From contig NZ_OZ034999.1 of the NCBI RefSeq assembly GCF_964030965.1, positions 1,612,001 to 1,676,000 of the forward strand: a DNA stretch of 64,000 bases. Reading direction: 5' to 3'. Origin of the DNA: Spiroplasma endosymbiont of Amphimallon solstitiale (lineage in GTDB: Bacteria; Bacillota_I; Bacilli_A; Mycoplasmatales; VBWQ01). Positions 25,369 through 47,190 of this stretch are shown in pieces (position 1 is the stretch's first letter; each line of letters begins with the position of its first letter). Below the pieces are notes generated by a model. That model had not been told where the DNA came from. It saw only the letters and a list, made by a program, of their open reading frames with translations, and searched no databases. The position numbers were made by a program, and so were the translations under genes.

Positions 25369-25399
25369 GGGAGCGTGACAAAGATGTCGATAACAACTC
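25369..25399 (+). repeat. Left terminal repeat of element C
   Basis: GGGAGCGT is identical to the right end read outward-in; the next 20 bases share GATGT and GATAACAA-like blocks imperfectly. Confidence 0.85.
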
Positions 25400-25539
25400 A
25401 TTTCCCTTAAATAGCTCCTTTCTTTTTTAAACCCTTGAATTAAAAATAAATGACAAAAGACGAGAATAAAAATCTTGTCTTTTTTTTGTAATTGTAAAAT
25501 TTTAAAATTTTTAATAACCGTCTTTAACGCTATTATCAA

Positions 25540-25795
25540 CACGTGTTAGGGAACTAAAAAAGTGAACTACAACACAGTTGTTAAAAATAGTAGCTAGAAC
25601 ATGTGGACTTGCATGGATAAATAAAAAGTGGAGTGATACCTAATAAAATATACTAACCATTAATGGTAATCCTTGGGGTGGAAGCGGATTGGAAACTAGT
25701 ATATATAGACCTGTTGTAGGGACCTATTGTATTAATTCTATTCTTTATTTAACCAACCTTGCCACCCACCCAGTGAGCAAGTGTTGGTTTTATTT
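25540..25795 (+). ncRNA. Candidate structured non-coding RNA with terminator
   Basis: A 250-nt stretch with no ORF, clearly richer in G and C than its surroundings (for example CCTTGGGGTGGAAGCGGATTGG), ends in a long hairpin AACCAACCTTGC...GCAAGTGTTGGTT (25751-25790) followed by a T-rich run. It lies between the left end of C and its first gene. No known RNA family recognised. Orientation is inferred from the terminator. Confidence 0.45.
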
Positions 25796-25820
25796 TTTAT
25801 TTTTTTTGAAAAATTTTTTT

Positions 25821-25966
25821 GGGCGAGAAAATAAATTTCAAACTTTTAAAAAAAATTGAGCGGTGCCGGTTCAATTAAAGTATTAATTTGTTAAACACAA
25901 ATTAAATAAATATTGAATCGAATGCCTCGATTTCTTTTTAAAATTTCACAATTTATTTTTGAGCCC
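25821..25966. other. 146-bp long imperfect inverted repeat
   Basis: Outer arms GGGCGAGAAAATAAATT and AATTTATTTTTGAGCCC pair; inner blocks TTGAGCGGTGCCGGTTCAAT and ATTGAATCGAATGCCTCGA pair imperfectly; the tip is TAATTTGT-TAAAC-ACAAATTA. The whole segment can fold as one rod. It could be a MITE (ends GGGC resemble the element ends) or a phage origin/packaging or RNA element. No clear target duplication. Confidence 0.6.
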
Positions 25967-26025
25967 AGTTTTCATGGAATGAATAAAACGAATAGTAGTA
26001 TTATTAATAATCTAAAAATCAAAAT

Positions 26026-26059
26026 ATATGTTCTTTATGCTACAAGCAACAGAACATAT
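26026..26059. promoter_or_regulatory. Hairpin just upstream of element C early gene 1
   Basis: ATATGTTCT / AGAACATAT stem with a 16-nt loop containing TTATGCTAC, a string also found in the hairpin before early operon A. It ends 15 bp before the start codon. Possible operator or attenuator. Confidence 0.45.
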
Positions 26060-26329
26060 TAGGAAAGGATTATTATGCAAATAGAATTTAAAAAAGAACA
26101 AATTGTAAAAGATAAACCACAATCTATTCTTATTGATTATGGTGAATATAAATTACAATTTCCAAAATGAATGGTTAAAAATAATAGTTTTATTGTTGAT
26201 GATAAATATACATATTGAGTTTTTAATTTAGAAAATATTAAAAGAGAATTAAGTGGTAATGAATTAATAAAATTATTAGAACCATATATTAAAGACCAAA
26301 AAATAACCTTTAATTTTGTAGAAAAGTAA

Positions 26330-27703
26330 GGCAATGTTTAGTAATCTGTGTAACTTACAAAAATAACTATGTTTAATTAATTCTAGTAAATATAATTAAA
26401 TGACTAGAAAGAGTGAGTTACAGATGGCTAAAAAACAAAATATTAATAATAATGATCCAATATCAAAAGCAGTAGATTTATTATTAGAAAATACTGAAGA
26501 TTTAACAACAGTTTTTAAAGAAGGGGGTTTATATAAAGAATTAACAAAACGTTTAGTTGAAAAAATGTTGAATTCTGAAATGCAAAATTATTTAGGATAT
26601 GAAAAAAATCAACATAGTAATACTGAAAATGCTCGTAATGGTACAAGTTCAAAAAAATTAATAACTCAACAAGGTAAAATTGAGATTGATGTACCAAGAG
26701 ATCGCAATAGTGATTTTACTCCTGTAATAGTTGCAAAAAGACAGCGAAGATTTGATGGTTTTGATCAACAAGTGCTTTCACTATATGCAAAAGGTATGAC
26801 TCTATCTGACATTAGAATGCAGTTACAAGAGTTATATCATGGTGCTGATATTAGTGAAAGTGTTATTAGTCAAATTACTGATGATGTTATTGATGATGTC
26901 AAAGCATGACAAAATCGACCATTAGAAAGCATTTATCCGATTGTTTATTTTGATTGTATAGTAGTTAAAGTTCGACAAGATAAACGGATTATTAATAAAT
27001 CAGTTTATATAGCATTAGGAGTTGATTTAGAAGGTAAAAAAGATGTTTTAGGCTTATGAATTAGTGAAAATGAAGGTGCTAAATTTTGATTAGCTAATTT
27101 CACAGAAATGAAAAATCGAGGCTTAAATGATATTTTGATTGCTTGTAGTGATAATTTAACAGGCATGTCAGAAGCAATACAAGCAGTTTATCCTAAAACA
27201 GAACATCAATTATGCATTGTTCATCAAATTCGAAATAGTTTAAAATATGTTTCATACAAACATCGAAAAACTCTAGTTACAGATTTAAAACCAATTTATA
27301 GTGCATGTAGTGAAGAACAAGCAATGCAAGCTTTAGAATCATTTGAAAGTAAATGAAATAAACAATATCCCCAAATTGCTAAATCTTGATATAAAAATTG
27401 AGAAAATTTGATGATTTTTATTAGTTATCCTGCAGAAATCAAAAGAGTAATTTATACAACAAATGCTATTGAATCTGTTAATAGTCAATTACGAAAAGTT
27501 ATTAGAAACAAAAAAGCTTTTCCTAATGATATGTCAGTTTTTAAAATATTTTATTTAGCAATTGAAAATATAACAAAAAAATGAACATTGCCTATTCAAA
27601 ATTGAAATACAGCAATTGCTCATTTTATGATAAAATTTGAAGACAGAATTAATCTGAACTAGTACTTTGTAAAACAAAGATACACAGATTTCTAAAAAGC
27701 CTC
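26330..27703 (+). mobile_element. IS256-family element copy 1, complete
   Basis: 1374 bp. Ends GGCAATGTTTAGTAATCTGTG and GAGGCTTTTTAGAAATCTGTG are imperfect inverted repeats. Target duplication AAAAGTAA (26322-26329 and 27704-27711). Confidence 0.95.
26400..27662 (+). CDS. IS256-family (Mutator-type) transposase
   Basis: 420 residues from the first ATG; an ATG eight codons later (MAKKQNINN) is an equally possible start. Catalytic residues: VYFDCIVVK (first D), [10 protein letters not shown] (second D), C/H region [16 protein letters not shown], and [14 protein letters not shown] (E). Several TGA Trp codons divide the frame in the standard code. Intact, and the same as copies 2 and 3 apart from single bases. 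Confidence 0.95.
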
Positions 27704-28117
27704 AAAAGTAATGATACATGATAAAGTGTTATTTTTAGAGAATTTTTACACTAAATAATGTTACTTTTAACAAATTTTTAATTAAAAATAATATTTTAAG
27801 TGTAAATTGATGAATAATTTTTGGTCATCCATACTTTTCTACATAATTAAAAAAAATAACTGTTAATAAACCAATTATTCCAAAAGAATATTATCTTAAT
27901 GATATAAAACTTGAACCACTAACATTTTATGACCAGCATAATAGTTGATTTATGGGTGAAATAACTGATAACAAAACTAAAATTACTAATCCTTGTTTTA
28001 AATATAACATTACGTGAGAAGAAAACAGAAAAGGTTTTAAAATAAATAATCCATATAATCATAATGATTTACCAATTAATTATATAGTTACTTCTTATAA
28101 GGAAATTTCAACTCATA

Positions 28118-28288
28118 ATGAAAAAGTATTTTTGTTGAACATGTAAACAACATAAATTAGATTATTTATTCTTTAATACTAATGATATAAAAACAAAAAA
28201 ATATTTTTTAAGAGATAACAATAGTAAAGCAATTTGTTCTGACTGTATTTTAAATATTAGGTTAAGTAGGAGGTATAAATATGGATAA
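28118..28288 (+). CDS. Small zinc-ribbon protein (element C)
   Basis: 56 residues, MKKYFCWTCKQHK... and AICSDCIL: two CxxC pairs. Overlaps the end of early gene 1 by 29 bp in another frame and the next gene by 8 bp. Positional counterpart of the A gene at 20122. Confidence 0.55.
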
Positions 28289-28484
28289 AGAATATTTAAC
28301 TAAAAGAGGAACGATTTACATAACGGACAGTGATGATATTGAATTTAAAATAGGACTAATTAAACTGATTGATGATTTAAAAAAAGATAATTTAGTTTGT
28401 GGTCATAAAGAATTTATTGAAGAATGTAAATATTGTTGATGTAATTGTGATTTAGAAATTATTAAAACAATTATTAGAGGTTAA
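28281..28484 (+). CDS. Cys-rich small protein (element C)
   Basis: 67 residues, MDKEYLTKRGTIYITDSDD start and a C-terminal cluster CGHKEFIEECKYCWCNC, a likely metal site. AGGAGG is its strong ribosome site. Function unknown. Confidence 0.65.
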
Positions 28485-28492
28485 CTTAATTA

Positions 28493-28930
28493 ATGCAATA
28501 TGAGTTAATTATCGGTATTGACCCTGCTGGTATTGGTAATAACGGAATTGTTATATATTCAAATGAAACTAATAATATTCTCTTTAATGAAACATTTAAA
28601 ACTAAAACGGTTTTAGAAAGTAAAAATTTGTATAAAGAATACTTTTTATTAATTAAAAAACATTCTGATAATAAAAAAATAATAGTTATTGTAGAAAATT
28701 TCTTTTTAAATTCAAAACAATTATTAACTAATCCATTAGCAACTCCTAAAATTATTGGTGCATTAATGGTATTAGTAGAAGATATTATGAACTGAGATTA
28801 TCAAGAAAGTGAACCAAAAAATAAAACTAAAATAGAAAATTATAAAGGAAATATAAAATTAACAAAACATGAACAAGATGCTTATAAGCATATTCAATAC
28901 TATTTAAGGAATTATAAAAATGAAAGATAA
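28493..28930 (+). CDS. RuvC-like resolvase of element C
   Basis: 145 residues. IIGIDPAGIGNNGIVIY holds the first Asp, IVIVENFFL the second acidic position, and KHEQDAYKHIQYYL the C-terminal acidic/His segment of RNase H-fold resolvases. It is shorter than the A/B versions and not closely similar. Likely processes branched DNA for packaging. Overlaps the next gene by 11 bp. Confidence 0.7.
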
Positions 28931-29213
28931 AGCCAATTATGTCAAATTAACAGTAAAACTGAGTAACACTATTGAAGCAAAATATTATGAAAAAGGTAAT
29001 AAAGAATTATATTATAGTGTTCGAGGTCAATGAAATGGTTTAAACTATGTTACTTTAATTTTTAATAACCCAAAATTTTATAGACGCTGTATTTTATTAA
29101 ACAAAAATGATGAAATTATAGTAACTGGTGAAATCTTTAATAATTGAAATATGAATATAAATCGTGCATTTTGTTCAATTAATGTTAAATGATTTAAAAA
29201 ATGAAAAGAGTAA
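28920..29213 (+). CDS. Possible OB-fold, SSB-like small protein
   Basis: 97 residues with alternating beta-strand pattern (NYVKLTVKLSN, YYSVRGQW, NYVTLIFN, EIIVTGEIFN, FCSINVKWFKKW) and many aromatics. This is the look of a small OB-fold single-strand-binding protein, but no diagnostic motif is present. Lies directly after the resolvase. Confidence 0.45.
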
Positions 29214-29216
29214 AAA

Positions 29217-29378
29217 ATGATATTATGAAAAATTTTATTAATAATACTAATATTAATAACATCTATAACACTAATAATAATTTTAATATTTATTATTAAA
29301 GAGTTAAAAAATGAATATAAAGTATTAAAAATATTAAGCGAATTTGCTAATCAAATTGAAAATAAGGAGAATAAATAA
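29217..29378 (+). CDS. Small membrane protein (element C)
   Basis: 53 residues; one long membrane helix (ILLIILILITSITLIIILIF) then a charged tail ending ENKENK, which contains the next gene's ribosome site. Confidence 0.55.
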
Positions 29379-29602
29379 TGAAATGTTTTCTATGCATGCA
29401 TGGAGAAATATATTCTCCAAAAACCTTGTATAAAATAAAAAAATTGAAAAAAATAATTTACAAAGATAAAGATATTGATAGTGAAGATTTTAAGAAAAGA
29501 TATTCATATCTTTTAAAAAAATTAGGTGATGGTGATACTCAAATTATTTGAATAAATTTATTAATAAAGCAAGAAAAAAATGATAGAAAAGAGAAAAAAT
29601 AA
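29378..29602 (+). CDS. Small basic protein (element C)
   Basis: 74 residues, MKCFLCMHGEIYSP with one CxxC, then lysine-rich helices. The start overlaps the preceding stop (TAATG), after GGAGAATAA. Function unknown. Confidence 0.5.
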
Positions 29603-29706
29603 TGAATAGATGTGAACATGAAGATGTAAGTATTTAATTAGTATTTAGATGTGATAATTGTAAAGCTGTTCAGTTTCAACATCCAAAAAATAATAAGGAG
29701 AAATAA
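29602..29706 (+). pseudogene. Small zinc-ribbon gene with an in-frame TAA
   Basis: MNRCEHEDVSI, then TAA (29635-29637), then in the same frame LVFRCDNCKAVQFQ to a second TAA. The two halves together form a 34-residue ribbon-like protein with CDNC. Confidence 0.5.
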
Positions 29707-29708
29707 TT

Positions 29709-30277: not shown

Positions 30278-31105
30278 ATGCCAAGTATAGAAAATACACA
30301 ATCAAATTATACTTTAACTAAATTAATAAGAACTGGTATAAGTCCTATTTGTGCAATGATTGGTACAAGTGCTTATTATGGTCAAGTAATTGCAAATCCA
30401 ATATTAGGTTCAATTAATAGTTTATTATTTGGTAAAAAATTAGGTTTAGATATTTGAAATTTAAATCAAAGACCAAATACTAAAACTAAATTAATTAATA
30501 GTTCTAAAAAAATAGCATTAGGATTAGGAACAATTGGTTTAGCAAATTATAGTAAATGAACAGAAAATAATATTAATCCTATTATTCCAACAACACCAAT
30601 TCCAGTAACTACTACAACTACAACAGAAGGTCCGCCATGATTACTATTAAATAAACAAGAAAATCAGTCATTAATGGATTGAGATACATATATTAGTTTA
30701 AATGCTTATGGTATTTCAAATCTTATTAGTGGATTAACTGAGTTAATACCTAATAAATTTGAAACAATAAGAAAAATTTGTAATATGGCTACTGGTGGTT
30801 GTTTAATTTCAAGTGGTGTTGCAATGGGTATAAATAATGATTTTAATAATGCTTATGCAGTACCTACCATAATTGCTGGTGCAAGTGAAATAATCCATAA
30901 TTTACTACCTATGGAAACTACAAATCATATTCAAGAAATGCAAGAAACACCATTTAATAATGAAACTGCAAGATTAATTAATGATAATAGATTTTCAATT
31001 AATAGTGAAACAACCAGTCATTATGGTAGTGATAATATGAGCGAAGTACCATTAAATCACGATAATGCTTCATTAAATTGAGATTATAATCACATGAATT
31101 TATAA
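30278..31105 (+). CDS. Putative phage membrane/structural protein, 275 aa
   Basis: Several hydrophobic, glycine-rich segments (ISPICAMIGTSAYYGQ, IALGLGTIGLANY, GGCLISSGVAMGIN), a Pro/Thr linker (PTTPIPVTTTTTTEGPP) and a polar Asn/Ser C-terminus. This looks like a membrane-interacting phage protein, for example of the ejection apparatus, but no domain is recognised. GGAG upstream. Confidence 0.55.
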
Positions 31106-31519: not shown

Positions 31520-31900
31520 ATGTTAGAAAATGAAAATAATGTTCAACAAACAACTGAACCTTTAACTGAAAATAATAACGATTCTTCACAAGAAATAGAA
31601 AATAAAGTTAATGAAGCAGAAAATAAGTTAAATAAACTTAATCAAGAAATTAAAGAAAAAGAAATAATTAATATATTTAAAAAATATCAAGTTAAAACTG
31701 AATTTTATGATTATTTAAAATTTAAAACTAATAATTTAGAAAATTCAAAAATTGAAGAAACTATTAAAAAAATGATTAAAGAACAACCAGTATTTAAAGA
31801 AACAATTAATACAGGTGGCAAACCACAAATAATAATAACAAATCAACAAAATTCAATTAAAAGTACATTATTGGATTATAAAAAAAATAATAATTTATAA
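31520..31900 (+). CDS. Putative capsid scaffolding protein
   Basis: 126 residues: acidic Asn/Gln/Glu-rich N-terminus, a long charged coiled coil (NKVNEAENKLNKLNQEIKEK), then a C-terminal part ending STLLDYKKNNNL. Charge, coiled coil and the position directly before the capsid candidate match phage scaffolding proteins. GTGGTGATG upstream. Inferred from context. Confidence 0.55.
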   Translation: MLENENNVQQTTEPLTENNNDSSQEIENKVNEAENKLNKLNQEIKEKEIINIFKKYQVKTEFYDYLKFKTNNLENSKIEETIKKMIKEQPVFKETINTGGKPQIIITNQQNSIKSTLLDYKKNNNL

Positions 31901-32298
31901 CAGAAAGGAAATCAAAAAATGGCAATACAATTCAATAAAAATTTAGATAATACCGAAAAATTAGTAGAAGCACCAGAATTTATAGAATTTTATAAACAAT
32001 CAAATTCACCATGAGCAAGTTTTTTTCCTATCGAAATGGTTAATTCAACAAAAATTGAATTTATAGTTAAAAAACCAAAAAATTCAGAAATTAAAGTATT
32101 AAAATGAAATGATAAAAGCAAAGGATTAGATGTTAGTTATGCTGAAACTATTAAAATTTTAAAAGAAATTAAAGAAGAAGCAGTTGCGGGTGAAATAATT
32201 GCTAATGTTGATTTAAATGCTGAAAATGGACAAAATTTATTAAATACAATGCAATATGAAGTTGCTAATGACTTAGCAGATTATTTAGCAAATAATGA

Positions 32299-32460
32299 CT
32301 TTAATTTTGTAGAAAAGTAATTATACATGATAAAGTGTTATTTTTAAAGAATTTTTACACTAAATAATGTTACTTTTAACAAATTTTTAATTAAAAATAA
32401 TATTTTAAGTGTAAATTGATGAATAATTTTTGGTCATCCATACTTTTCTACATAATTAAA
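32299..32460 (-). mobile_element. MITE copy 7 (162 bp)
   Basis: Perfect 9-bp duplication AAATAATGA (32290-32298 and 32461-32469), in the capsid gene. Confidence 0.93.
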
Positions 32461-32603
32461 AAATAATGATACAAATGTAATTGCAAAATATGCAACTAAA
32501 ATAGACATTACTGATAAAACACCAGTAGGATATTTAAAATCAATGTTAGATGCTTGAAATACTTTATTTCAACTAAGAAATAGTAATAATTGTCGTTTTT
32601 TTA

Positions 32604-33977
32604 GAGGCTTTTTAGTAATCTGTGTATCTTTGTTTTACAAAGTACTAGTTCAGATTAATTCTGTCTTCAAATTTTATCATAAAATGAACAATTGCTGTAT
32701 TTCAATTTTGAATAGGCAATGTTCATTTTTTTGTTATATTTTCAATTGCTAAATAAAATATTTTAAAAACTGACATATCATTAGGAAAAGCTTTTTTGTT
32801 TCTAATAACTTTTCGTAATTGACTATTAACAGATTCAATAGCATTTGTTGTATAAATTACTCTTTTGATTTCTGCAGGATAACTAATAAAAATCATCAAA
32901 TTTTCTCAATTTTTATATCAAGATTTAGCAATTTGGGGATATTGTTTATTTCATTTACTTTCAAATGATTCTAAAGCTTGCATTGCTTGTTCTTCACTAC
33001 ATGCACTATAAATTGGTTTTAAATCTGTAACTAGAGTTTTTCGATGTTTGTATGAAACATATTTTAAACTATTTCGAATTTGATGAACAATGCATAATTG
33101 ATGTTCTGTTTTAGGATAAACTGCTTGTATTGCTTCTGACATGCCTGTTAAATTATCACTACAAGCAATCAAAATATCATTTAAGCCTCGATTTTTCATT
33201 TCTGTGAAATTAGCTAATCAAAATTTAGCACCTTCATTTTCACTAATTCATAAGCCTAAAACATCTTTTTTACCTTCTAAATCAACTCCTAATGCTATAT
33301 AAACTGATTTATTAATAATCCGTTTATCTTGTCGAACTTTAACTACTATACAATCAAAATAAACAATCGGATAAACGCTTTCTAATGGTCGATTTTGTCA
33401 TGTTTTGACATCATCAATAACATCATCAGTAATTTGACTAATAACACTTTCACTAATATCAGCACCATGATATAACTCTTGTAACTGCATTCTAATGTCA
33501 GATAGAGTCATACCTTTTGCATATAGTGAAAGCACTTGTTGATCAAAACCATCAAATCTTCGCTGTCTTTTTGCAACTATTACAGGAGTAAAATCACTAT
33601 TGCGATCTCTTGGTACATCAATCTCAATTTTACCTTGTTGAGTTATTAATTTTTTTGAACTTGTACCATTACGAGCATTTTCAGTATTACTATGTTGATT
33701 TTTTTCATATCCTAAATAATTTTGCATTTCAGAATTCAACATTTTTTCAACTAAACGTTTTGTTAATTCTTTATATAAACCCCCTTCTTTAAAAACTGTT
33801 GTTAAATCTTCAGTATTTTCTAATAATAAATCTACTGCTTTTGATATTGGATCATTATTATTAATATTTTGTTTTTTAGCCATTTGTAACTCACTCTTTC
33901 TAGTCATTTAATTATATTTACTAGAATTAATTAAACATAGTTATTTTTGTAAGTTACACAGATTACTAAACATTGCC
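32604..33977 (-). mobile_element. IS256-family element copy 2, complete
   Basis: 1374 bp, target duplication TTTTTTTA on both sides. Transposase at 32645-33907. Confidence 0.94.
32645..33907 (-). CDS. IS256-family transposase
   Basis: Intact 420-codon frame, differing from copy 1 by single residues such as VKT for VKA at the end of the first block. DDE residues all present. Confidence 0.93.
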
Positions 33978-34667
33978 TTTTTTTATTACTAATAATCTTT
34001 ATGATAGTATTGTTTATTTAGCTAATAATAAAGGATTAATTACTGATAATCAGATTGCTCAACAATTAAGATTAAATGGAAATGATTTATATATTAAAGG
34101 TGTACTATGTCAAATTGTAATGGATGATTATATGACATTTACTGATAATAATGAAACTAAAATTATGTCTTTTGTTTTAGCAACACCAAGAGCAATGAAA
34201 AGATATATGTTACAAAATACAGTTGTATATGTTCAAGATATTGCTGATGGTAAAGTTGGAAGAAGATATTTAGTTGGTGGAGAAGTAACTGGTGAATCAA
34301 TACCCTATATAACAGATGAAGAAACAACTTCACGTTGAATGCTATGTGCAATTGTTAATAATGATAAAAATGATTTAAAAACTAAGATTACAAATTTAAC
34401 AACTGATATTACTGCAAATGTTAATAACAATAATAGTGAATTAAATACACAAATAAAAAGTACTAATGAACTTAAATCATTAAATCCAAATTTAACAAAT
34501 CCAACTATTAAATATTTTAGTGATGCACAAGGAAAAACTAATGTAAGTAATCAAAAACAAAAAGCAGGTGACTTATACATAGTTATTTCTTCAAATGTTA
34601 ATGATTTAAATTATAAAGGTTCAACAAATCCAATTAAAATAACTCTTAAATAAAGGAAATTAATATC

Positions 34668-35834
34668 ATGCCAATTGGTACAACTAGTACAGCAATACTT
34701 TTAAACATAAATAAACCAAAACATACTAGAACAAGTAACCAACAAGAAAATAAAAGTTTTTGATGAGAAATTTTAGAAATGATTGGTGTACAAGTAATAG
34801 CAGTAGCACTTGCTCCTTTTACTGGTGGTTTAAGTGAAAGTATAGCACTTGGATTAGGTGCAAGTGATTTAATTGCTAGTATTAGTGCTGTTGGTGTAGA
34901 GTTTTTAACTGATTTTACTATTAATCAAGTTTATGATTATTTAAAAGGAAATGTAACACCATTAAATACTTTTTTTAATATATTACCTGCATTTGTTGGA
35001 ATTAATAAAATTAGTCGTGGTTATCGTACTACTAAATTTATTAAGTTAGCACAAAAAACTAAAACATTAGAACAAATTGGTGTTAAAGAAGCAAAAAATT
35101 TACAAGAAATTATTAGTCAAGTAAGTGGAAAAGAAATTTTAACAGATAAAATCATTGGTAATAAACGTTATTTATTTAATTATAGTTTGGCACCTAATCG
35201 TGAAACAATAACACAAAATTTAGGTTATGTTGCTGAAAAACAATTTAAAAATAATTTTAAATCTTTAAAATCACAACAAATAAAAGAATATTTATCATTA
35301 CAAAATACATTAATAAAATTAAGTCCACAATTAACTCCAAAGTTTAAAATTAAAGATATTGAAAAAGCAAATAACTTTTTAAAAAAATATAATACTGAAT
35401 TAAAAGAAGTATTAAAAATGAACCAACATGATTGATTAAATTTAGTTCATACAATACATACAGAGAATAGATATGGAAAAACTTTAATTTTAGATTTACA
35501 AAAAATTCGTGCTAATGCTATTAAATTTAATTTTAAAAATAGTTCAATTCATAAAATTGTTTTAAATGCAAATAAAATTTTTAAGTATTTTGATATTAGA
35601 TTTTATTTAAAAAAAGGTTTAAATAAATTTTGAAAAGATACACCATATTTTGAAAAATTACGAGAAAGTATATATAAATTACAAGAAAAATTTGAAAAAT
35701 TAGAAAAACAAGCATTTGAAAAAATTAATAAATTAAAAGAAAAAGCAACAGATTTATTTACTAGTGCAGAAAAAAGAGCAATTAAACATGCACAATTAAT
35801 TCCACTAAATTCACCAGTATTTATGGGTTGTAAA
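34668..35834 (+). CDS. Late protein with hydrophobic N-terminus and coiled coil
   Basis: 388 residues. Residues about 35-75 are hydrophobic and glycine-rich (VIAVALAPFTGGLSESIALG), followed by a basic helical region and a long Lys/Glu coiled coil (KLQEKFEKLEKQAFEKINK). It may be an internal or ejection-type virion protein. It ends YGL-TAA at 35834; ATG of the next gene lies inside its last codons. AAGGAAAT upstream. Confidence 0.6.
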
Positions 35835-36536
35835 ATTCAACCTTTATCATTAGACAAATGTTTTAATTATGTAGAAAAGTATGGATGACCAAAAATTATT
35901 CATCAATTTACACTTAAAATATTATTTTTAATTAAAAATTTGTTAAAAGTAACATTATTTAGTGTAAAAATTCTCTAAAAATAACACTTTATCATGTATC
36001 ATTACTTTTCTACAAAATTAAAGGACAAATGTGCAATTACTATTTATCATCGTAATCCTAAGTATAAACCAATTACAGTTGTTGATAGTATTCTTAAAGC
36101 AAAAACTTTTGTTACTCAAATACATCCATTTCATTGATATCGTTGATATAGTGGTTGATACATTGGTTATGGTGTTAATCGTAATAAATGATTAAAAGCA
36201 ATAGCATTTACTCCACCAGTGGTGCAACAAGTAATTAGAGATAGTTTTAAAGTATATAGAGAAATATTTAGAACTATTAGAACTTATCATAAAGTTGTAA
36301 ATGTTATTAATAATCCTATTGAAAATATTAATAAATCATTTAAAAGTGTTGGTTTAAAATTTTCAGTTAATACTTTATTTGGTACTGGACTATTACATCA
36401 TTTAGAAAAATTTGCATATAGTCAAGTTGTAGAAAAAGGTAAGAAAAAATTACAAAAAGAAATTATCCATATATCACATAGGAAAACTAAAACAAAAACT
36501 AAACATTATAAAAAAGCATTTTTTAAGGAATGATAA
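35824..36536 (+). pseudogene. Overlapping late gene, split by a MITE
   Basis: Rebuilt 180 residues: MGCKIQPLSLDK start overlapping the previous stop by 11 bp, then AITIYHRNPKYKPITVV, a Trp-rich block FHWYRWYSGWYIGYG and a basic C-terminus. A MITE enters after codon 13. Alternatively the two frames were once a single gene and the extra T at 35820-35823 is a frameshift. Last codon before TAA is a Trp TGA. Confidence 0.55.
35863..36023 (+). mobile_element. MITE copy 8
   Basis: 161 bp by my count; perfect 9-bp duplication GACAAATGT (35854-35862 and 36024-36032). Confidence 0.92.
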
Positions 36537-36539
36537 ATT

Positions 36540-38813
36540 ATGATTAATAAACTTTGAACTGATGTCAGTCTTGAAAATTATAATAACTGATATCCATTAA
36601 CTGGAAAAATTACAGAAACTCCATCTCAATATATAAATACATGACCTAATGTCAAAGACTGATTTACAACTTTTGCTATTCGCGCTCAAAATGATATTAA
36701 TGCTTATCTTGATTTTATTTTATCTAAATTTCCTTTTGATAGTTTTAAAGATGAATTAATTAAAGAAACATTAAGAGATATGGTTTATGTAATGGTTGAA
36801 CATTGAGTATTTAATCGTACACCAATTGAATTTAATGTTGATGCTACTATTCAATTCAATAATGGTACATCATTTAATGCAAGTAGTATTCCTACAATTA
36901 ATGTTTGAGATTTAGCACCAAGTAGAATGAAAATATGAGCAAGATTAACAGAATTAAAACAAGTATTTTCAAATTATAATCAAGATGAAATAGATATTGA
37001 AAAAATTGACTTAAAAGTATTTTATACTAGAAATCAAGTTGATGAATTAATTAAAGAACAAAAAGAATTTACATTATCAAAACAAATAAAATTATATGAT
37101 GATTTAGTTAATGATAACGAAAATGAGATATATAGGGGTCGTGTTACAAACTTTATAAATAAAGGTTATGTTGCAACTGATTATGACCCAAAAACTGAAA
37201 CAATGATTTTAGATTGACCTGATGAAATTGGTACATTACCACCAGAAGCATTACAAAATAATCCACAAATTGGTGATTTTACTCATGCTGCGACTGCTGA
37301 CTTTTCTGCTAAACAACAAAAAAGAATTACTACTAATGAAAATAGTATTAAATTATTAGAAAATAAAGTTGATATTAATAAACAAAATATTGATGATATT
37401 AAAAATAATTGATTTAATATTGAAACTAGTCCTTTATGAAAAAAAGTTAAAAATGAAAATATTAAAACAGATATATGATATATTATTGATTGAACATATT
37501 ATTTTATCGATAGTAAACAACTTATTATAAGTAATAATAAATTAACTAAATCTAATATAAGAATTACTAATCATCAAATAGAAAATAGACAAATAATAAT
37601 TGAAAAAATTGATGTTAATATTGACAAAGTAATGTTATTATATGATGATAATTCAATAAAATTTATTGTTAATAATAGCACAAAAAAGTATACACCAATA
37701 ATTCATAATATATATCAATATCAAGGTACTGGAACACCAACTGAATTTATAGCAGAAGAAAGTACTGAACGTGATTATTATACAAAACTAGAAACTAATA
37801 ATTTATTAGATAAAAAACAAGATAAATTAATTGCTGGTACTAATATAACTATTGATGAAAATAATAAAATTAGTGCTACTGGTCGTAAAACCGATTTAAC
37901 TGATTATTATAAAAAAGAAGAAGTAGATAAAAAATTAGAAGACACAGAAAAAAAGTTTCCAGTAGCATTTCAATTGAATGCTGTAAGTCAAGAAATCCCT
38001 AATTTAGAAACTATTAATAAAACTGTTGCTGGTGCTATTAATGAAAATAAAGCAAATATTGATAAAAAACAAGATAAAGAAATATGAAAAGTAATAAGTA
38101 AAAGTAAAAATAATCGTGAATGAGATACGTTTGAAATTAATTTTAATACTGTATATAGAGTAATTATAACATTAGATGAATTACCAGTAAATCAAGCAAA
38201 TATAAAGCATAAAGTAGAATTTAAAACTGGTAATTATTTAGGTGGAGATTATTTACTTGCAAAATTTAAAATTAAAGATGAAGATGTAATATTAACTTTA
38301 ACTGTTAGAGAAAGTAGTTTTAATTGTAGTTTATATTTAAAAGGTGGAGATATTAATTATGGTGCTATTCTTTCATTAGAAGAATTACAAAATACAATTA
38401 AAGTTGATGTTACACCAAAATTAAAAATTAATTCAAGAAGTTTAAAAACTAATGAAATAGAAGAAAATTATTGAGATATTGAATTACCAGATAATCCAAC
38501 ACCAAGTCCAAATAATCAACAATGAAAAGATGTAGGAACAAGAGAAAAAAATAAATGAGATAATTGACAAATTACTTATGATTTTATAGTTAATAAACAT
38601 TATAGAGTTTATTATTCTTGAAGTATATATAATCCAGTTTATACTATTCAAGAATTTATTATAACGGATAACAAAATTGCTGGTGTACCAATACAAACCT
38701 TTAATGATAGTGTTAATATAGTAATTTTATCAGTTCAACATGCTAAATTGATTACTATTTATAGTGGAAAAGGTAATTTAAAAGGTAATGTATGAAAATT
38801 AGAAGAATTATAG
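36540..38813 (+). CDS. Putative tail fibre / receptor-binding protein
   Basis: 757 residues. Central region has the phage fibre signature YYTKLETNNLLDKKQDKL followed by AGTNITIDENNKISATG and a second copy-like DYYKKEEVDKKLEDTEKK, a repeat style common in host-recognition fibres of Gram-positive phages. The N-terminal 230 residues (NNWYPLTGKITETPSQYINTW) probably attach to the virion; the C-terminal 250 residues are beta-rich with many Trp, consistent with ligand binding. Many TGA Trp codons. Longest intact late gene. Ribosome site is weak (GGAATGATAAATT). Confidence 0.72.
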
Positions 38814-38946: not shown

Positions 38947-38962
38947 AAAGGTGGTGAGTATT

Positions 38963-40210
38963 ATGTTAGGTAGATTTTTTAGAAAAGATAAAAGTAATAT
39001 TAGTGATAATCAAAATGAAAAAGTAAAATTTTTAACTAATAAAAATAAAAGTACTCATGCTTCAATTTTAAATTATTTTGGTTTTAATGATTTTAATCAT
39101 GAAACTTATTTTACTGATTTTGTAGCAGAAAATAATGCTAATTTATATAATGCTCCATTAGAAATAAATAATGAAACCATTAAACAATATTTAATTCAAC
39201 AAGAATTTTATAGAAAAAATTGAAATTCTATTTTTAAATTAAGTAAATTAGGAATTAGTGGTTATTTAATTTATATTGCAAATGATGATCTATATTTTCA
39301 ATTAGTAGATATACAACAAAGAATTTATGATATTACTGGTAAATTAATTCAATGTACTATTTTTTATGATAGTTATCAACAAAATGCACAAACTGTAAGA
39401 TTATTTGAAATTTATACACTAAATAATGAACAAGTAACTATTAATCGTGCAATTTATAGTATTAGTGATAATAAAAAACAATTTCCATTAGATTTTAAAT
39501 CATACATTAATAATCCTAATTTAGAACAAGAGCAAATATTAAATATTAATTATATTCCAATAGCAATTATGCGAAATAAAGCAAATGAATTAGCAGATTG
39601 TAATAAAGTAATGGATAAAATTAAAGCACTAGATGTTATTTATGAACAAATTGTTTTAGATACTATTTTAAACTCACCAAAATTTATATTTAGTCAAACT
39701 TATGGTAATGTTCAATCAACATTAGAAGAAGCAGTAAGAATATTGGTTACTAAAAATTATATTTTTAAAAGTGGTGGAGATAATAATGAACAAAATGAAA
39801 ATATTAATATGACAAATAGTAATTTTAAAGGTAAGAATTTAACTGATATATACGATTGAAATGTTAATGAAATATTTAAACATTGTGGAATTCATATACC
39901 AAGTCAAAAGAAATCAGCACAACAATCAGTTCCCGAAAGTACAGCAGTAAATATTTCAACTATTAATTATATTGAACAAAAATTATGACAATTTAATATT
40001 GATATTCTTAAATTTATTCAAATATTAGTAAGCATAGATAAAGATTTATTAAATAGTAAAACATTTAACATTAATGATGAACAAAAAATTAATAATTTAA
40101 CAGTTAAATTAAAATTATTTAATCCAGAAAATAACCAATTAATAGGAGAAAACAATGGAAAAGAACAACAAACCACAAACGAAGTTTCCACAGAAACAGA
40201 AGCAAACTAA
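38963..40210 (+). CDS. Putative portal protein
   Basis: 415 residues. The order fits phage portals of the SPP1/phi29-like types: basic N-terminus (MLGRFFRKDKS), KLSKLGISGYLIYIANDDLYFQLVD, then YIPIAIMRNKANELADCNKVMDKIKALDVIYEQIV and an acidic disordered tail. The portal is the dodecameric ring at the capsid vertex that docks terminase. GAAAGGTGGTGA is a strong ribosome site. Its last 56 bases overlap the next gene in another frame. One internal TGA Trp per half. Confidence 0.62.
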
Positions 40211-42197
40211 ACTTAATCAAGCAGAAGTAGAAAATGATTATTTAATTGATAATATTCCATATGATTTTACTAATCTTATGAGTAGCAAAGGTGACCCTGA
40301 GCTTAAAAGAGCATATGATGAATTTAAACTAAGAACTTTATATATTTATGAAATTGAGCGTTTATTTAAAAATAATGAAAATAATAGTTTAAGATTTTCA
40401 GCAAATACTATTAAAATAGGTTTTATTGATATTGATAAAGTATTAAAAACTACTGCTGCTGAAACATCAGACTTTACTATGCAATTAAATCAAAGAGCAA
40501 GTACTAACATTAATGATAATACAATTGAATATAGTATGACTGATATTAAAAATTTAATTTTTCAAGAAATAAATTTATTAAATCAATTTAAGTTATATGC
40601 AGTATCTATTAATGAACCATTAACTGAAAATAATATTGATAATTTATATATCATTAATAATTATTCACAACCTTATCAAAATCCAAAAACAAGAAGTACT
40701 AAAAGTATAACTATTATTAAAATTAAAGATTTTAAAACAAGAGATGGTTATCCAATTATTATTAAATTACAAAAACCATTAGATAAAGATACAAAAGTTA
40801 TTGGTTTAAAAATTAAAGCTCCTAGAAGTATGATTTTTGGCAATATAAAGGTACTTGGTGAAGTTGACAATATGGAAGTATACCCAAAGTTATTTGTTAA
40901 AGATAAAATAGCATTTCCGCTATTATCAATGCCTATTGAAACTCAACCAAAAGTTAGAATATTACAACAATGATTTAGTGAACAAATATTACCTTGAAAT
41001 TTAGCAAAACAATTTATAGGACAAGAAAAATCAGTTTTAGATTTAATTGCTATTGGTGGTGGCAGTGAACCTAGAAAAGAAGTTATTAATAATGCAAGAA
41101 TAACGTTTACTAATATTGGTAAATATGACGGTGGAGACCCAATACCAAGTAATTTACCTGATTTTAAAATGAAAGAAAATATACCATATTTATTATATAA
41201 TAGCCATAGTCCTAATCCACCTTATCCAAGTAGAAATATTGTAATTGAATTATCTAAAAATTTTAATGATATAGAAATTGAAATAAACGATAAACCACCA
41301 ATTGATAGTTTACAAAAAGTATTATTAGACATGTTAACTTATACATATACTTATAATAGAAACTTTGATGGTGCATCATTAAATCCAACTCAGCCAAATC
41401 AATTAGATAAATTACGAGCAAAATTTGAAGGACAAAAACCAAGTGAAGTAATAACTAATTTGTTTAAACAATGAGAGTTAGATTATCCAAATTATATAAA
41501 TTTACCACAAATACAAATTTTTAAGAAAATAGTTTTGATGATATCAAAAAATATTTATTCAATAATATCAATTAATAATGGTTTAAATGATGATTATAAA
41601 TTATTATTACCATATTATTTTGAATTAAAATCAAATCCTATACATTATACACCCGATGTAGTTTGGGAATTTAAAGATGTAAAAGTAATATTAAAATCTG
41701 TATATTTTGATTTTACTGATGTTAATAACATTAAGCTAAAAAATAATGATATTAGTCAAAATCAATTATTTAAATTAGATGATAACCAATTTAACTGATT
41801 ATCTATTACAAATGAACTTGAAAGTAATAATATTCCATCATTAATTCCAGCAGATTGAACATTAGGAAATGGAGAATATGGAAAGTATTTTACAAGAACA
41901 ATTATTGAAAAAAACAAAATCGAAAACGCTTTAAATTTATATGGTTCTAATAAATCTCAACTATTTTCAAAACTAGAATTTTATAAAGAAATTTCACAAA
42001 TTGATAATGATAACCAATTTGAATTACAAATTGAAAATCCGATTAATAACTTAAATCGGATTGAAATTAGTGGTATTTTTGGTGCTGGAAATTATGATTT
42101 AACTTTAATTACCAATAAGCAAAAAATAAATTTAAAAAATATTAATTTATTTGATAAATACAATGAAAATATTTCATATATTAATATTGAAATTTAG
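40155..42197 (+). CDS. Large late structural protein, 680 aa
   Basis: MEKNNKPQTKFPQKQKQTK basic start, overlapping the portal gene by 56 bp. Body is beta-rich (SANTIKIGFIDIDKVLKTT; KSITIIKIKDFKTRDGYPII; RIEISGIFGAGNYDLTLITN). No domain recognised; perhaps a tail/knob or collar protein. It ends 1 bp from the convergent minus-strand gene. The N-terminal Lys/Gln run derives from the portal's C-terminal coding sequence in an alternative frame. Confidence 0.55.
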
Positions 42198-42198: not shown

Positions 42199-42496
42199 TT
42201 ACTTATTAAAATATCCATCAGGATATATTCTATCTCATTTTATATCAGCAGAAATTAGCGGTTTATCAATATGAAAATATAAAACTATTTTATGATTATC
42301 ACCGGTTTTATTTGCTCAAATAGTTGTACCATCCCCCCCAGTGAACTTGATAATTTCAATCAAGAAATGATTGATAACCATTAGTTTTATTTTGTGCTAT
42401 TGAACCAATTATTAAACCAGTTACTCCACTTACTGCGCCAGTTAGTGCTAATGCTAATGTTATTTTACTTAAATTTGTTTTTATTCATGTTTTCAT
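42199..42496 (-). pseudogene. Membrane-anchored surface protein gene with G7 frameshift
   Basis: MKTWIKTNLSKITLALALTG start with one signal-anchor helix (LALTGAVSGVTGLIIGSIA). The frame breaks at a run of seven G (42333-42339); with six G it continues WGDGTTIWANKTGDNH to a TAA at 42199, giving about 98 residues. AAGGAG upstream. Either phase-variable, a mutation, or a sequencing error at the homopolymer. Confidence 0.6.
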
Positions 42497-42769
42497 ATTA
42501 AATTACTCCTTTTTTCCTTGATTTTACTTTAAAATTGTACTATTTTTGATTATTTTTACAAGTATACTTTTAAATAAAAAATAAGGCCTAAATTAAAGGC
42601 GTTTATTTCATGAGACCTATACTATTAATTATATTGAAATTGTTTATTATATAGCAAATGTGAAGATACTTTTTTTCACAGTAGCATTATTTTTACCCCT
42701 AATTACATTTTTATATGGATACAGTGCATAAAACAATGCATCATAAGGGTCTTGATGCATATTCTTGTC

Positions 42770-44143
42770 GAGGCTTTTTAGAAATCTGTGTATCTTTGTT
42801 TTACAAAGTACTAGTTCAGATTAATTCTGTCTTCAAATTTTATCATAAAATGAGCAATTGCTGTATTTCAATTTTGAATAGGCAATGTTCATTTTTTTGT
42901 TATATTTTCAATTGCTAAATAAAATATTTTAAAAACTGACATATCATTAGGAAAAGCTTTTTTGTTTCTAATAACTTTTCGTAATTGACTATTAACAGAT
43001 TCAATAGCATTTGTTGTATAAATTACTCTTTTGATTTCTGCAGGATAACTAATAAAAATCATCAAATTTTCTCAATTTTTATATCAAGATTTAGCAATTT
43101 GGGGATATTGTTTATTTCATTTACTTTCAAATGATTCTAAAGCTTGCATTGCTTGTTCTTCACTACATGCACTATAAATTGGTTTTAAATCTGTAACTAG
43201 AGTTTTTCGATGTTTGTATGAAACATATTTTAAACTATTTCGAATTTGATGAACAATGCATAATTGATGTTCTGTTTTAGGATAAACTGCTTGTATTGCT
43301 TCTGACATGCCTGTTAAATTATCACTACAAGCAATCAAAATATCATTTAAGCCTCGATTTTTCATTTCTGTGAAATTAGCTAATCAAAATTTAGCACCTT
43401 CATTTTCACTAATTCATAAGCCTAAAACATCTTTTTTACCTTCTAAATCAACTCCTAATGCTATATAAACTGATTTATTAATAATCCGTTTATCTTGTCG
43501 AACTTTAACTACTATACAATCAAAATAAACAATCGGATAAACGCTTTCTAATGGTCGATTTTGTCATGCTTTGACATCATCAATAACATCATCAGTAATT
43601 TGACTAATAACACTTTCACTAATATCAGCACCATGATATAACTCTTGTAACTGCATTCTAATGTCAGATAGAGTCATACCTTTTGCATATAGTGAAAGCA
43701 CTTGTTGATCAAAACCATCAAATCTTCGCTGTCTTTTTGCAACTATTACAGGAGTAAAATCACTATTGCGATCTCTTGGTACATCAATCTCAATTTTACC
43801 TTGTTGAGTTATTAATTTTTTTGAACTTGTACCATTACGAGCATTTTCAGTATTACTATGTTGATTTTTTTCATATCCTAAATAATTTTGCATTTCAGAA
43901 TTCAACATTTTTTCAACTAAACGTTTTGTTAATTCTTTATATAAACCCCCTTCTTTAAAAACTGTTGTTAAATCTTCAGTATTTTCTAATAATAAATCTA
44001 CTGCTTTTGATATTGGATCATTATTATTAATATTTTGTTTTTTAGCCATCTGTAACTCACTCTTTCTAGTCATTTAATTATATTTACTAGAATTAATTAA
44101 ACATAGTTATTTTTGTAAGTTACACAGATTACTAAACATTGCC
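42770..44143 (-). mobile_element. IS256-family element copy 3, complete
   Basis: 1374 bp in the terminase gene; target duplication TTCTTGTC (42762-42769 and 44144-44151). Confidence 0.95.
42811..44073 (-). CDS. IS256-family transposase
   Basis: Intact 420-codon frame with all DDE residues; reads as copy 1. Confidence 0.93.
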
Positions 44144-45808
44144 TTCTTGTCTGGAATATTAGTTTTTGTTTCATCATAACGTAATTCTTCTAAACATTGA
44201 GTTGTTTTTGGTAAATCATCTTTATTTGCATAAAAGTTTCCATAACTCATAATATTTCTCATTCAAACTACTCTATTAGTTAATCCGGCTTCTTGATTTA
44301 AATTTGAAGCATGTTTAATAGCAGTTTGTGTTATTAAAATAGTATTGTGTTCATCAATTAATTTTTGATTTAATCAATCCATTGCTGTTCTTGCTTTATC
44401 ATCATAAAAATAAATTGCTTGTTCAAAATTTTCAAAATTATCCATTAATCCTAAAATTTCATTAACATAAGCATTAATTTTTTCATTTTCATTAATAAAA
44501 TCATTTGGTGTAACAACTAATTCACAAATAATATAAGCATCATAATAACCAGTATTATTATATTCTTTAAAACCAACTATCATAAATACAGTATGGTCTT
44601 TATGTCCAGTTGCTCAATCAACACCAACTGAATAAAAATCAAATTTATACATATCTTTTTCTTGATTATAAAATTGTTTTAAATCATATGGTTGTCAATA
44701 TTTTACTGTTTTTTGAAATGGAAAAATTGTTGCATCACTATCTAAAAATTCAAAACCATAAAAAACAGTATTAAATTCATCAGGATTACTTTTTTTCATT
44801 TCTAATAATGTTCTTTTTTGAATATCTGGTAATTTATTTCAAAATGGTTGAATAGTAAATCTTAAAACAAATAAACCTAAACCACTAAACATATCTTGAT
44901 TTTCATAATAAATTTTGCCAATTTTTTTAAGATTTTCCATTACTTTATCATTTAATGGTAAAAATGGTGTACAGTATTTTAAATAAAATGGATGATATTT
45001 ATCATAAGGATTGCATGTAAACGTAATGAAAAAACTTTTATAAAAATAACGAGTAATCAATTTTCCAAAAGTAGAACTATATATATTTTTATCAATAAAG
45101 GTTCAGCTTCATTCTTTAATAGGTTCTTTTGATATTTTAATACGATTACTTCTAAACATAGAATTTTGTAATCGTTCATATCGATATGTTAATTGCTTTT
45201 CTGTTAGTGTTTCTTTTTCTTCTGCCATAATAATTTCATCTGTTCTTGAACCTAAAAAACTTGACCCACCTGCTTCTTTTCCAAAAATCTTATTACCATT
45301 AGCATAACCAATAAAGTCAATTTGTTGATTATTAGGAAAAATAATACATCCACCATTCTTAGTTATTTTTCATTTAATACCATGTGGATTATTAGGTAAT
45401 AAATTAATATTATATTCATCTAATAAAACTTGACAAACATTCATTAAAGCACCAATTGTAGTTTCACTATGAGTATTTTCATATCTTCTTACTTCTTGAA
45501 CACTACTATCACTAAAATTACAACATATAAATAAATCAAATGCTAAGCAGTTTCAAGTTTTTCTTGTTCCACGTGCTGTTGGTATAAAACGATAAAAACA
45601 ATTAGTAGTAAAATATTCTGCTCATTCATCACCAACAAATGCTTTAAAAATATCTCAACTAAAACCATAATTATTATCACTAAAATTAAGATTATATTTT
45701 TTATTCAGTTGTGCATAACTACTAATAAAAGCCATATTTTACTCCCTAATTTTTATAAACAATACAATTAAATTATTAACAAACAAAATTTTGAAAGGAA
45801 CATTAAAA

Positions 45809-46969
45809 ATGTTAAAACTACCATTCGCAAATCATTTTGATTGAGACAAACACTATTTTAATCAAGATGAATTAAATTTACAACAAACAGAAGAATTATT
45901 TAAAAAAATAGATGATTATTTATGAAATACATGTGATAAATCTGTATATAAATCATATAGATTTAGAAAAAGAAAATTAAAAACAAAAAAAGGTTTATTA
46001 ACTTATAAACGACGTATTTGTATATATTATAACCCAAAAACACAAAAAAAGGAATTTGTTTCATTGCTAGATAATTATCTTGGTGTTAAAAAATATAGTA
46101 AACTTGCACCTAATGTTATTAAACAAATTTTAAAATATTTTGCTGATGGTAAAAAATATCGTGATGTTTGTGATACTTTTATTGAGGATTTAATAAGTAC
46201 TAGTACAGTTTGTAGAACATATCAAAAATTTCAATTACCAAAAGCTAATATTCCTAAAATACCATTGCAACCAAATCAAACTTTATATATAAATATTGAT
46301 GATGGACATAGAAAATTTAAGTTTAATGAAAAACATAATACTAAAAATTGTAAAAAATGTTCTATGAGATTACTAGTATTTTGTACTGGTAAAAAGAAAA
46401 ATGGAAAATTAATTGATAAAAGAGCTGTATGTAAAATAAGAGTATCAAAAACAGAAATTGGTGCAGAAAAAACAGCTAAATTAATTCAAACATATGGTAA
46501 TTTATATTTTGAAAACTTTGACCAAGCAAATTTAGTAGTTTGTGGAGATAGTGCAAAATGAATTAGAAAAACTGCTCAAATTTTAAATGCTAAATTTATT
46601 TTAGATAAATTTCATGCTTTTCATGTTTTATTTCTTGGAATAATGGCTGGAAGAAGAAAAAATAAAATTGCTAAATTGCACTATGAAAATGCAATAAATT
46701 TATTTGTCAAAGGTCAATATTATGAATTAATTGATTTTTTACAATCATTAACTTTACAATATAAAAAATTAAAAGTTGGTTATTTTATTAATGCAAAAGA
46801 TGGTGTATTAAACCAAGCACTAGTTGAAAATATTGGTTGCTTTACTGAAACTAATATTAAACAAATTTTAAAGCATATGATTGGTGATAGAACATATAAC
46901 ATTGATATGTATACAAAAATGGTTAATTTTAAATGCTATCAAATAAATACAGCCATACAGTTATTATAA
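45809..46969 (+). CDS. UPF0236 / Mbov_0401-type DDE transposase of element C
   Basis: 386 residues. LTYKRRICIYYNPKTQKKEF and SLLDNYLGVKKYSKLAPNVI match the conserved N-terminal part of UPF0236 (ISLre2-related) proteins. Catalytic region: YINIDDGHRKF (first D), LVVCGDSAKWIRKTA (second D), ILDKFHAFH, then the C-terminal segment with VLNQALVENIGC. Proteins of this family act as ICE transposases in mycoplasmas (Mbov_0401 group), where 8-bp duplications are made, as seen here. It lies 221 bp from the right end and is divergent from terminase. GAAAGGAA upstream. Intact, unlike many structural genes. Confidence 0.82.
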
Positions 46970-47011
46970 ATTAAAATTAAAATTTTAAAAAAAATGAAAA
47001 ATAAAATAAAA

Positions 47012-47042
47012 CTTATTAAAGTTTTCTTTAATAAGAATTTTT
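47012..47042 (+). terminator. Terminator after the element C transposase
   Basis: Perfect 10-bp stem CTTATTAAAG / CTTTAATAAG with TTTT loop, followed by AATTTTT. Confidence 0.75.
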
Positions 47043-47190
47043 GAGTTATAAAAGTAAGTATTATTGTTGACTAATATTTGTCAAGTGTTAAGATTAACAT
47101 ACAATTGCATATTGAAGTCTAAATTATTCTCGTCTAACTTTATAATTTTAAGACAAATTTGAATATTATTGACAACATCGATACGCTCCC
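47043..47190 (+). repeat. Right end of element C
   Basis: About 150 bp non-coding, ending in the inverted repeat GACAACATCGATACGCTCCC. The duplicated TTTAATTT follows at 47191-47198. Confidence 0.85.

What the first reader, a model, noticed from the sequence alone, without database searches (positions are those of the whole stretch)
25369..47190. A tailed-phage gene set inside a DDE-transposon frame (transposable phage of a mollicute)
Seen: GGGAGCGT inverted ends, a perfect TTTAATTT duplication in an IS30 whose empty site is visible in sister copies, a UPF0236/Mbov_0401-type transposase near one end, and portal, terminase, scaffold, capsid and fibre candidates between. No tyrosine or serine integrase was found. 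Known: this transposase group moves mycoplasma ICEs with 8-bp duplications. Inference: it has been adopted as the integration enzyme of a small tailed phage, a Mu-like lifestyle not known to me in Spiroplasma. Whether others have described it I cannot tell.
Basis: partly seen in the sequence, partly recalled or inferred. Interest (0 to 1): 0.9.

Follow-up and report, generated by a model that had tools for sequence, protein, structure and literature searches.

The report
Transposase-driven tailed phages of Spiroplasma
A dead copy of a small tailed bacterial virus in a Spiroplasma genome belongs to a large virus family that inserts itself with a jumping-gene enzyme instead of a normal phage integrase, and that seems able to swap this enzyme for unrelated ones.

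Summary
A 21,822-bp element (25369-47190) sits in the end of an IS30 copy with an exact 8-bp duplication; the uninterrupted site occurs 177 times in the genome. Its last gene is a full-length Mbov_0401/UPF0236 (p-MULT5) DDE transposase. No tyrosine or serine recombinase was detected genome-wide. This copy is broken by IS256 and a small repeat.

Relatives are widespread: the transposase begins beside the terminase gene in 22 of 23 selected same-genus copies, and 15 of 20 end-mapped copies have exact 8-bp duplications. TerL is firm, capsid fair, portal unproven.

'Mu-like' is not supported. Four of four tandem arrays have ends separated by 5 bp taken from the left flank. Two GenBank genomes of another tailed Spiroplasma phage with this transposase show the same 5-bp junction. 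This fits a circular intermediate, as in mycoplasma ICEs. Relatives carry IS481-, IS30- or IS3-like transposases in the same slot, and TerL-less siblings with intact head genes exist. A UPF0236-bearing Spiroplasma phage was already deposited, so what is new is the mechanism and breadth.

The parts
24374..25318 (-). IS30 transposase gene of the target IS copy; the element sits in its noncoding end
25361..25368 (.). left 8-bp target duplication TTTAATTT
25369..25398 (+). left terminal inverted repeat, GGGAGCGTGACAAAGATGTCGATAAC...
26075..26329 (+). P106 homologue, interrupted by an IS256 copy (26328-27712)
26400..27662 (+). IS256 transposase, a later insertion
28493..28930 (+). RuvC-like Holliday junction resolvase
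   Evidence: phrog_1981 7.4e-5, phrog_1770 4.3e-4
28920..29213 (+). P97, conserved small protein of unknown function
30278..31105 (+). P274, conserved protein of unknown function
31520..31900 (+). scaffold candidate (position only)
31919..34653 (+). major capsid protein gene, broken by the small repeat (32299-32464) and an IS256 copy (32593-33992)
34668..36536 (+). P572, conserved, split by the small repeat (35843-36023)
36540..38813 (+). fibre candidate: conserved N-terminal part, variable remainder
38951..40210 (+). portal candidate (position only; homology tests negative, AlphaFold model uninformative)
40155..42197 (+). P675, conserved protein, structural or injection candidate
42308..42496 (-). 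P93, small protein of unknown function
42650..45735 (-). terminase large subunit, interrupted by an IS256 copy (42761-44145); main ORF 44107-45735
45791..46969 (+). Mbov_0401/UPF0236 (p-MULT5) DDE transposase, divergent from TerL, starts 56 bp (TTG) or 74 bp (ATG) from it
47161..47190 (-). right terminal inverted repeat
47191..47198 (.). right 8-bp target duplication TTTAATTT

Best explanation
The element is an inactivated prophage of a tailed-phage family of Spiroplasma and relatives whose integrase is a DDE transposase encoded next to TerL at the right end. Shown by sequence: defined inverted ends, 8-bp duplications, and end-to-end junctions with a 5-bp spacer. Inferred: the transposase joins the right end to a point 5 nt outside the left end, giving a circle (or tandem) with a 5-bp spacer; the circle is replicated and packaged by TerL; in a new cell the transposase inserts it at AT-rich, otherwise unspecific sites, duplicating 8 bp. 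The transposase behaves as a swappable cassette: p-MULT5 in most copies seen, IS481-, IS30- or IS3-like in some relatives.
For: Ends, duplication and 177 empty sites. Full-length Mbov_0401 transposase with invariant D170, D253, D272xxH275 and E353 in six phage transposases (the C/D(2)H signature is described in PMC3942029, passage). TerL in 6 of 6 same-genus genomes and 29 of 320 genomes of the order, those six included. Transposase beginning within about 110 bp of TerL in 22 of 23 selected same-genus copies, some of them with one of the two genes interrupted; next to TerL in 10 of 11 closer g32 copies and in the one viral contig found. Exact 8-bp duplications in 15 of 20 end-mapped copies, one of them on a named S. 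citri plasmid. Tandem arrays: 4 of 4 have a 5-bp spacer equal to the last 5 bp of the left flank. OL689226 and OL689227: ends abutted with ATTTT and ATAAT. No PF00589 or PF00239 in the genome. Purifying selection: dN/dS 0.25 for type-1 transposases, 0.19 for TerL.
Against: 5 of 20 mapped copies lack an exact 8-bp duplication, and in the MaM-like lineage 0 of 3 are exact. For eight of the 15 the ends came from a scan that itself required an 8-bp match; of the 12 mapped without that, 7 are exact. All four arrays come from one unnamed assembly (G002). Type-2 transposases show weaker constraint (dN/dS 0.52). No excision, transposition or infection was observed here. Portal unconfirmed; both AlphaFold models useless. 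One TerL copy (L249) has no transposase nearby.
Confidence: 0.85

Rival explanations
1. A true Mu-like transposable phage: replicative transposition during lytic growth, packaging from integrated copies with host flanks.
For: DDE transposase inside defined ends, many copies at different sites.
Against: 8-bp duplication (Mu's is 5, recalled); no MuB-like protein among the 20 window ORFs scanned with Pfam; tandem junctions and two GenBank phage genomes with 5-bp-spaced abutted ends.
Confidence: 0.08
2. The transposon merely carries dead phage genes: the transposase moves a passive cargo that no longer makes a phage.
For: The window copy is broken and many copies are degraded.
Against: A copy with all large genes open; dN/dS 0.19 to 0.42 on TerL, portal candidate, P675, P572 and capsid; synteny kept at TerL identities of about 46% and 27%; about 19-kb phage contigs recovered from phage-like particles of S. 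poulsonii, for a different phage (PMC12453411, passage).
Confidence: 0.05
3. The phage integrates by another enzyme and the transposase is an IS that landed beside TerL.
For: IS insertions are common in this genome; relatives carry IS481-, IS30- or IS3-type genes there.
Against: The outer ends of the whole phage are the ones duplicated; same place and divergent orientation in 22 of 23 copies; no PF00589 or PF00239 in the genome.
Confidence: 0.02

Closest known systems
Mycoplasma integrative conjugative elements (MICE: ICEA, ICEF, ICEHo) with the p-MULT5 DDE recombinase CDS22
   Same: Same transposase family (NF046004); inverted ends; 8-bp direct repeats; transposase at the 3' end; circular form with a short coupling sequence (6 bp in ICEHo, PMC6813540 passages; 6-10 bp in the group, PMC3942029 passages; PMC7466169 passages).
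   Different: Cargo is a tailed-phage gene set, not conjugation genes; spacer is 5 bp.
Spiroplasma phage MaM-2019a (OL689226, OL689227, OL689230), S. poulsonii
   Same: About 19-kb tailed phage with TerS and TerL beside a terminal transposase; two of three records carry Mbov_0401 transposases and abutted ends with a 5-bp spacer.
   Different: TerL and portal not alignable with ours; capsid shares only a C-terminal domain; the third record carries an IS30-family transposase. The paper that I take to describe it (Ramirez et al. 2023) is not held.
Transposable phages of the Mu/B3/D3112 kind (recalled)
   Same: A DDE transposase as the integration enzyme.
   Different: Mutator-superfamily transposase, 8-bp duplication, no B protein found, circle-type junctions.
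TnGBS / ISLre2 / IS256 (p-MULT 3 and 1)
   Same: Related transposases, circular intermediate, 8-9-bp repeats (PMC3942029 passages).
   Different: ICE or IS cargo; insertion upstream of promoters not tested here.
phiMFV1/MAV1 and MAgV1 mycoplasma prophages
   Same: Prophages of mollicutes, the first two about 16 kb dsDNA (PMC7466169 passages).
   Different: Our TerL matched none of 50,697 phage records at E 0.01; whether these phages are in that collection was not checked.

Membership tests
Mbov_0401 / p-MULT5 transposase family | full-length match above curated cut-off | tested here: met
   264.7 bits against 162; seven relatives 224 to 294 bits
Mbov_0401 / p-MULT5 transposase family | DDE triad with C/D(2)H signature | tested here: met
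   invariant D170, D253, D272xxH275, E353 in 6 sequences; that these are the catalytic residues is inferred from the description in PMC3942029
Mbov_0401 / p-MULT5 transposase family | 8-9-bp direct repeats at insertion sites | tested here: met
   15 of 20 mapped copies exact 8 bp, 5 not
Mbov_0401 / p-MULT5 transposase family | circular form with 6-10-bp coupling sequence from a flank | tested here: inconclusive
   5-bp spacers equal to the left flank in 4 of 4 arrays; no circle observed
Mycoplasma ICE | conjugation genes | tested here: not met
   none among 20 window ORFs scanned with Pfam
Mu-like transposable phage | DDE transposase as integration enzyme inside the prophage ends | tested here: met
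Mu-like transposable phage | 5-bp target duplication and a MuB-type activator (recalled) | tested here: not met
   8 bp; no such Pfam hit in 20 ORFs
Mu-like transposable phage | virion DNA carries host flanks (recalled) | not testable with these tools
   no virion DNA of this phage; two records of another lineage show abutted ends
Tailed phage (Caudoviricetes) | large terminase subunit | tested here: met
Tailed phage (Caudoviricetes) | HK97-type capsid protein | tested here: inconclusive
   weak PHROG hits of relatives; C-terminal domain shared with the MaM capsid protein; AlphaFold useless
Tailed phage (Caudoviricetes) | portal protein | tested here: inconclusive
   no match by profile or PDB search; AlphaFold useless
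Integrase-type temperate phage | tyrosine or serine recombinase | tested here: not met
   no match to PF00589 or PF00239 in the whole genome

The most novel reading that the evidence does not exclude
Tailed phages of Spiroplasma and relatives, in at least two lineages, have given up site-specific integrases for exchangeable DDE transposase cassettes from at least four families (Mutator p-MULT5, IS481-, IS30- and IS3-like) in a slot beside the terminase genes. They move through a circle with a short spacer taken from one flank, which is what is packaged; and TerL-less siblings with intact head genes and their own transposase are helper-dependent parasites that use the terminase of full copies.
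Probability: 0.4. Interest if true: 0.88.

Novelty: new variant of a known kind. Interest (0 to 1): 0.77.

Why it matters
Transposable phages as usually defined are Mu relatives. This family shows tailed phages using the integration enzyme of ICEs and ISs, with a circle-type route instead of Mu's. It would explain how these genomes fill with dispersed prophages although no tyrosine or serine recombinase is detectable. Same phage, different transposase is a natural experiment on how integration modules are exchanged, and the 5-bp junction is a prediction that one PCR can test.

Tried and rejected
A pattern for the ends with a wrong gap length found nothing. A viral-contig scan for the junction reported 106 stretches, 80 listed; the pattern is a palindromic hairpin and I took these for noise without looking at them one by one; two more specific junction patterns gave none. 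Viral contigs gave no TerL relative for the single protein, one for the alignment and no portal relative. AlphaFold models of the portal and capsid candidates were uninformative (mean pLDDT 31.6 and 32.3), so no fold search was made. PDB sequence searches found no TerL, capsid or portal.

I took a run of N in OL689226 for a variable circle junction; prophage copies show ordinary, promoter-like sequence there. The real junction lies next to it. For the IS481-type phages the right end is sharp in 9 of 9 places with nine different flanks, but the left end was not found; a 9-bp match in G314 was dropped because the similarity to another copy runs past it. Near-duplications at G002 1262k, G177 1343k and G177 1585k remain unexplained.

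In one search, 6 of the exact 8-bp matches had no resemblance between the two ends and were dropped as chance (24,089 pairs tested). On the S. citri plasmid several weak right-end candidates existed; I used the one closest to the consensus. Regions were selected: 20 of the places, mostly the best ones. Of the genomes with distant TerL, seven loci were fetched; G196, G305, G104 and G054 were not. In the dN/dS run one region labelled TerL-less also holds a TerL-bearing copy.
Full report
WHAT IS THERE. The element runs from 25369 to 47190 (21,822 bp). GGGAGCGT occurs twice in the window, at the two ends and inverted, flanked by TTTAATTT on both sides. It lies in the noncoding end of an IS30 copy, and the same IS30 end without the insert occurs 177 times in the genome. 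The empty site and the 8-bp duplication are therefore certain.

THE ENZYME. ORF 45791-46969 is a full-length member of the Mbov_0401 mycoplasma-ICE transposase family (E 1.4e-78) and matches PF06782. In six phage transposases D170, D253, D272xxH275 and E353 are invariant, which fits the DDE triad with C/D(2)H signature described for the Mutator group in PMC3942029 (passages). No match to PF00589 or PF00239 was found in the host genome.

THE PHAGE. The window's structural proteins match nothing convincing by themselves. Relatives settle part of it. TerL: hhalign 95.6% with a Lactobacillus phage TerL; distant orthologues hit phrog_2 terminase large subunit at 5.9e-10 and 8.9e-7 and Pfam Terminase_3 at 1.2e-6. 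Capsid: proteins at the same position in relatives hit phrog_422 major head protein at 4.8e-4 to 1.3e-3, and the C-terminal domain is shared with the annotated capsid protein of phage MaM-2019a (hhalign 99.7%). The portal assignment stays unproven. The window copy is broken: three IS256 copies (arms of 1,385-1,400 nt, 99-100% alike) and three copies of a 150-167-nt repeat interrupt the P106, capsid, P572 and TerL genes. Copies with all large genes open exist in G002.

DISTRIBUTION. TerL is found in 6 of 6 same-genus genomes and in 29 of 320 genomes of the order, those six included and two at E above 1e-4. A portal search gave S. ixodetis SHM and the Danaus chrysippus symbiont (18 loci); TerL searches gave eight S. 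citri plasmids. In 22 of 23 selected same-genus copies (20 regions, two with two copies, plus the window; five genomes) the transposase starts within about 110 bp of TerL and diverges from it; in one it is 2.5 kb off. Some of these genes are interrupted. Two transposase types, about 43-46% identical, occupy this place. G003 has only TerL fragments and was not inspected. In g32, 10 of 11 closer TerL copies have an Mbov_0401-type gene or fragment next to them; L249 does not. Of seven loci with a distant TerL, three (L236, L237, L240) have one, two have an IS3-like gene or remnant, and in two I found neither.

ENDS AND DUPLICATIONS. Of 20 copies with both ends mapped, 15 have an exact 8-bp duplication, two are near (G002 1262k, 6 of 8; G002 391k, offset by one), and three have none (G004 C1 202k and the two TerL-less arrays). 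One exact case is eight As; one has its left end uncertain by one base. Eight of the 15 came from a scan that required the match, with resemblance of the ends as second criterion; of the 12 mapped without that requirement, 7 are exact. The S. citri plasmid NZ_CP046372.1 carries a copy with ATATTTTT on both sides, its transposase annotated UPF0236.

HOW IT MOVES. One genome (G002) holds four tandem arrays. Within each array the copies are identical over a whole period (17.6, 17.6, 15.3 and 15.6 kb), and the internal junction reads right end - 5 bp - left end. The 5 bp (CTTTT, ACTTT, TATAT, TTACT) equal the last five bases of the left flank in 4 of 4; a 5-base match has a chance of about 0.004 each. 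Two GenBank genomes of a different tailed phage with this transposase family show the same kind of junction: ATACGACC-ATTTT-GGTCGTAT in OL689226 and CATACAACC-ATAAT-GGTCGCAT in OL689227. The ends used in the first were read independently from chromosomal copies (four right ends, three left ends); those of the second match a right end in G176 and both ends of a copy in G181. That these records stem from particles I infer from their clone names and sizes and from PMC12453411 (passage). Circular forms with 6-10-bp spacers from one flank are described for this transposase group (PMC3942029, PMC6813540 passages). I infer a circle made by attack of the right end 5 nt outside the left end, then packaging of circle-derived DNA. 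In the MaM-like lineage no mapped copy (0 of 3) has an exact duplication.

SWAPPED ENZYMES. In three g49 genomes TerL (about 62% identical) has an IS481-like transposase (370 aa when whole) next to it in 9 of 9 loci, in eight within 500 bp, often truncated. Its IS481 score, 152.9 bits, is under the curated cut-off of 224; its best PHROG is transposase phrog_8463, 1.1e-64. The right end of these phages is sharp, with nine different flanks. In G183 an IS3-family transposase (218 bits, cut-off 160) stands 40 bp from TerL, and in G198 an rve remnant; these two are single loci and could be ISs that landed there. The third MaM-2019a record carries an IS30-family transposase (197 bits, cut-off 80) where the other two carry Mbov_0401.

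TerL-LESS SIBLINGS. Thirteen of 14 type-2 transposase loci fetched for this in the own genome have phage genes beside the transposase and no TerL in between. Two of the four G002 arrays are of this kind, with the other large genes present. They have their own end sequences and two exact duplications. dN/dS is 0.25 for the portal candidate and 0.26 for P675 in these loci, but 0.54 for their transposase. Whether they use a helper's terminase is untested.

WHAT IS KNOWN. Ten full-text searches, of which I saw listings of at most 20 papers each and passages of seven papers, showed no account of a transposase-integrated tailed phage in Spiroplasma; no held paper has both 'Spiroplasma' and 'UPF0236'. 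Most subscription papers, and all bioRxiv preprints, are not held. The paper that I take to be behind the MaM-2019a records (Ramirez et al. 2023) could not be read; PMC12453411 (passages) reports its ~19-kb contigs and a related contig with terminase and transposase-like genes. The transposase is annotated in GenBank; whether anyone proposed it as the integrase I cannot tell.

Noticed in passing
own genome G000: No match to Phage_integrase (PF00589) or Resolvase (PF00239) in a 2.1-Mb genome, so not even a XerC/D-type recombinase was detected.
   Followed up: partly
own genome G000: The uninterrupted IS30 end occurs 177 times, a very heavy IS30 load.
   Followed up: no
window 27704-27870, 32299-32464, 35843-36023: A 150-167-bp repeat, possibly a MITE, present three times inside the prophage, twice in structural genes.
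   Followed up: no
G002 C1 near 85k and 894k; 13 of 14 G000 loci: TerL-less copies of the same phage with their own transposase.
   Followed up: partly
L233:7196-8566, L203:5670-6896, L074:8747-9928: Capsid proteins with dissimilar N-terminal parts share one C-terminal domain; the OL689226 annotation notes a weak spiralin match for its capsid protein.
   Followed up: partly
L382 near 18895: OL689230 (IS30-type transposase) has TTTACAATTTACA-AAA-TGTAAACTGTAAA beyond the transposase gene, perhaps abutted ends with a 3-bp spacer.
   Followed up: no
G177 1343k and 1585k, G002 1262k: Left and right flanks agree only in the last five of eight bases, or would agree with a one-base indel, instead of an exact 8-bp duplication.
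   Followed up: partly
G005 L267, L269: A third, more distant transposase type (about 27% identical to the window's) lies near a MaM-like TerL (33-35%) in the same genus.
   Followed up: no
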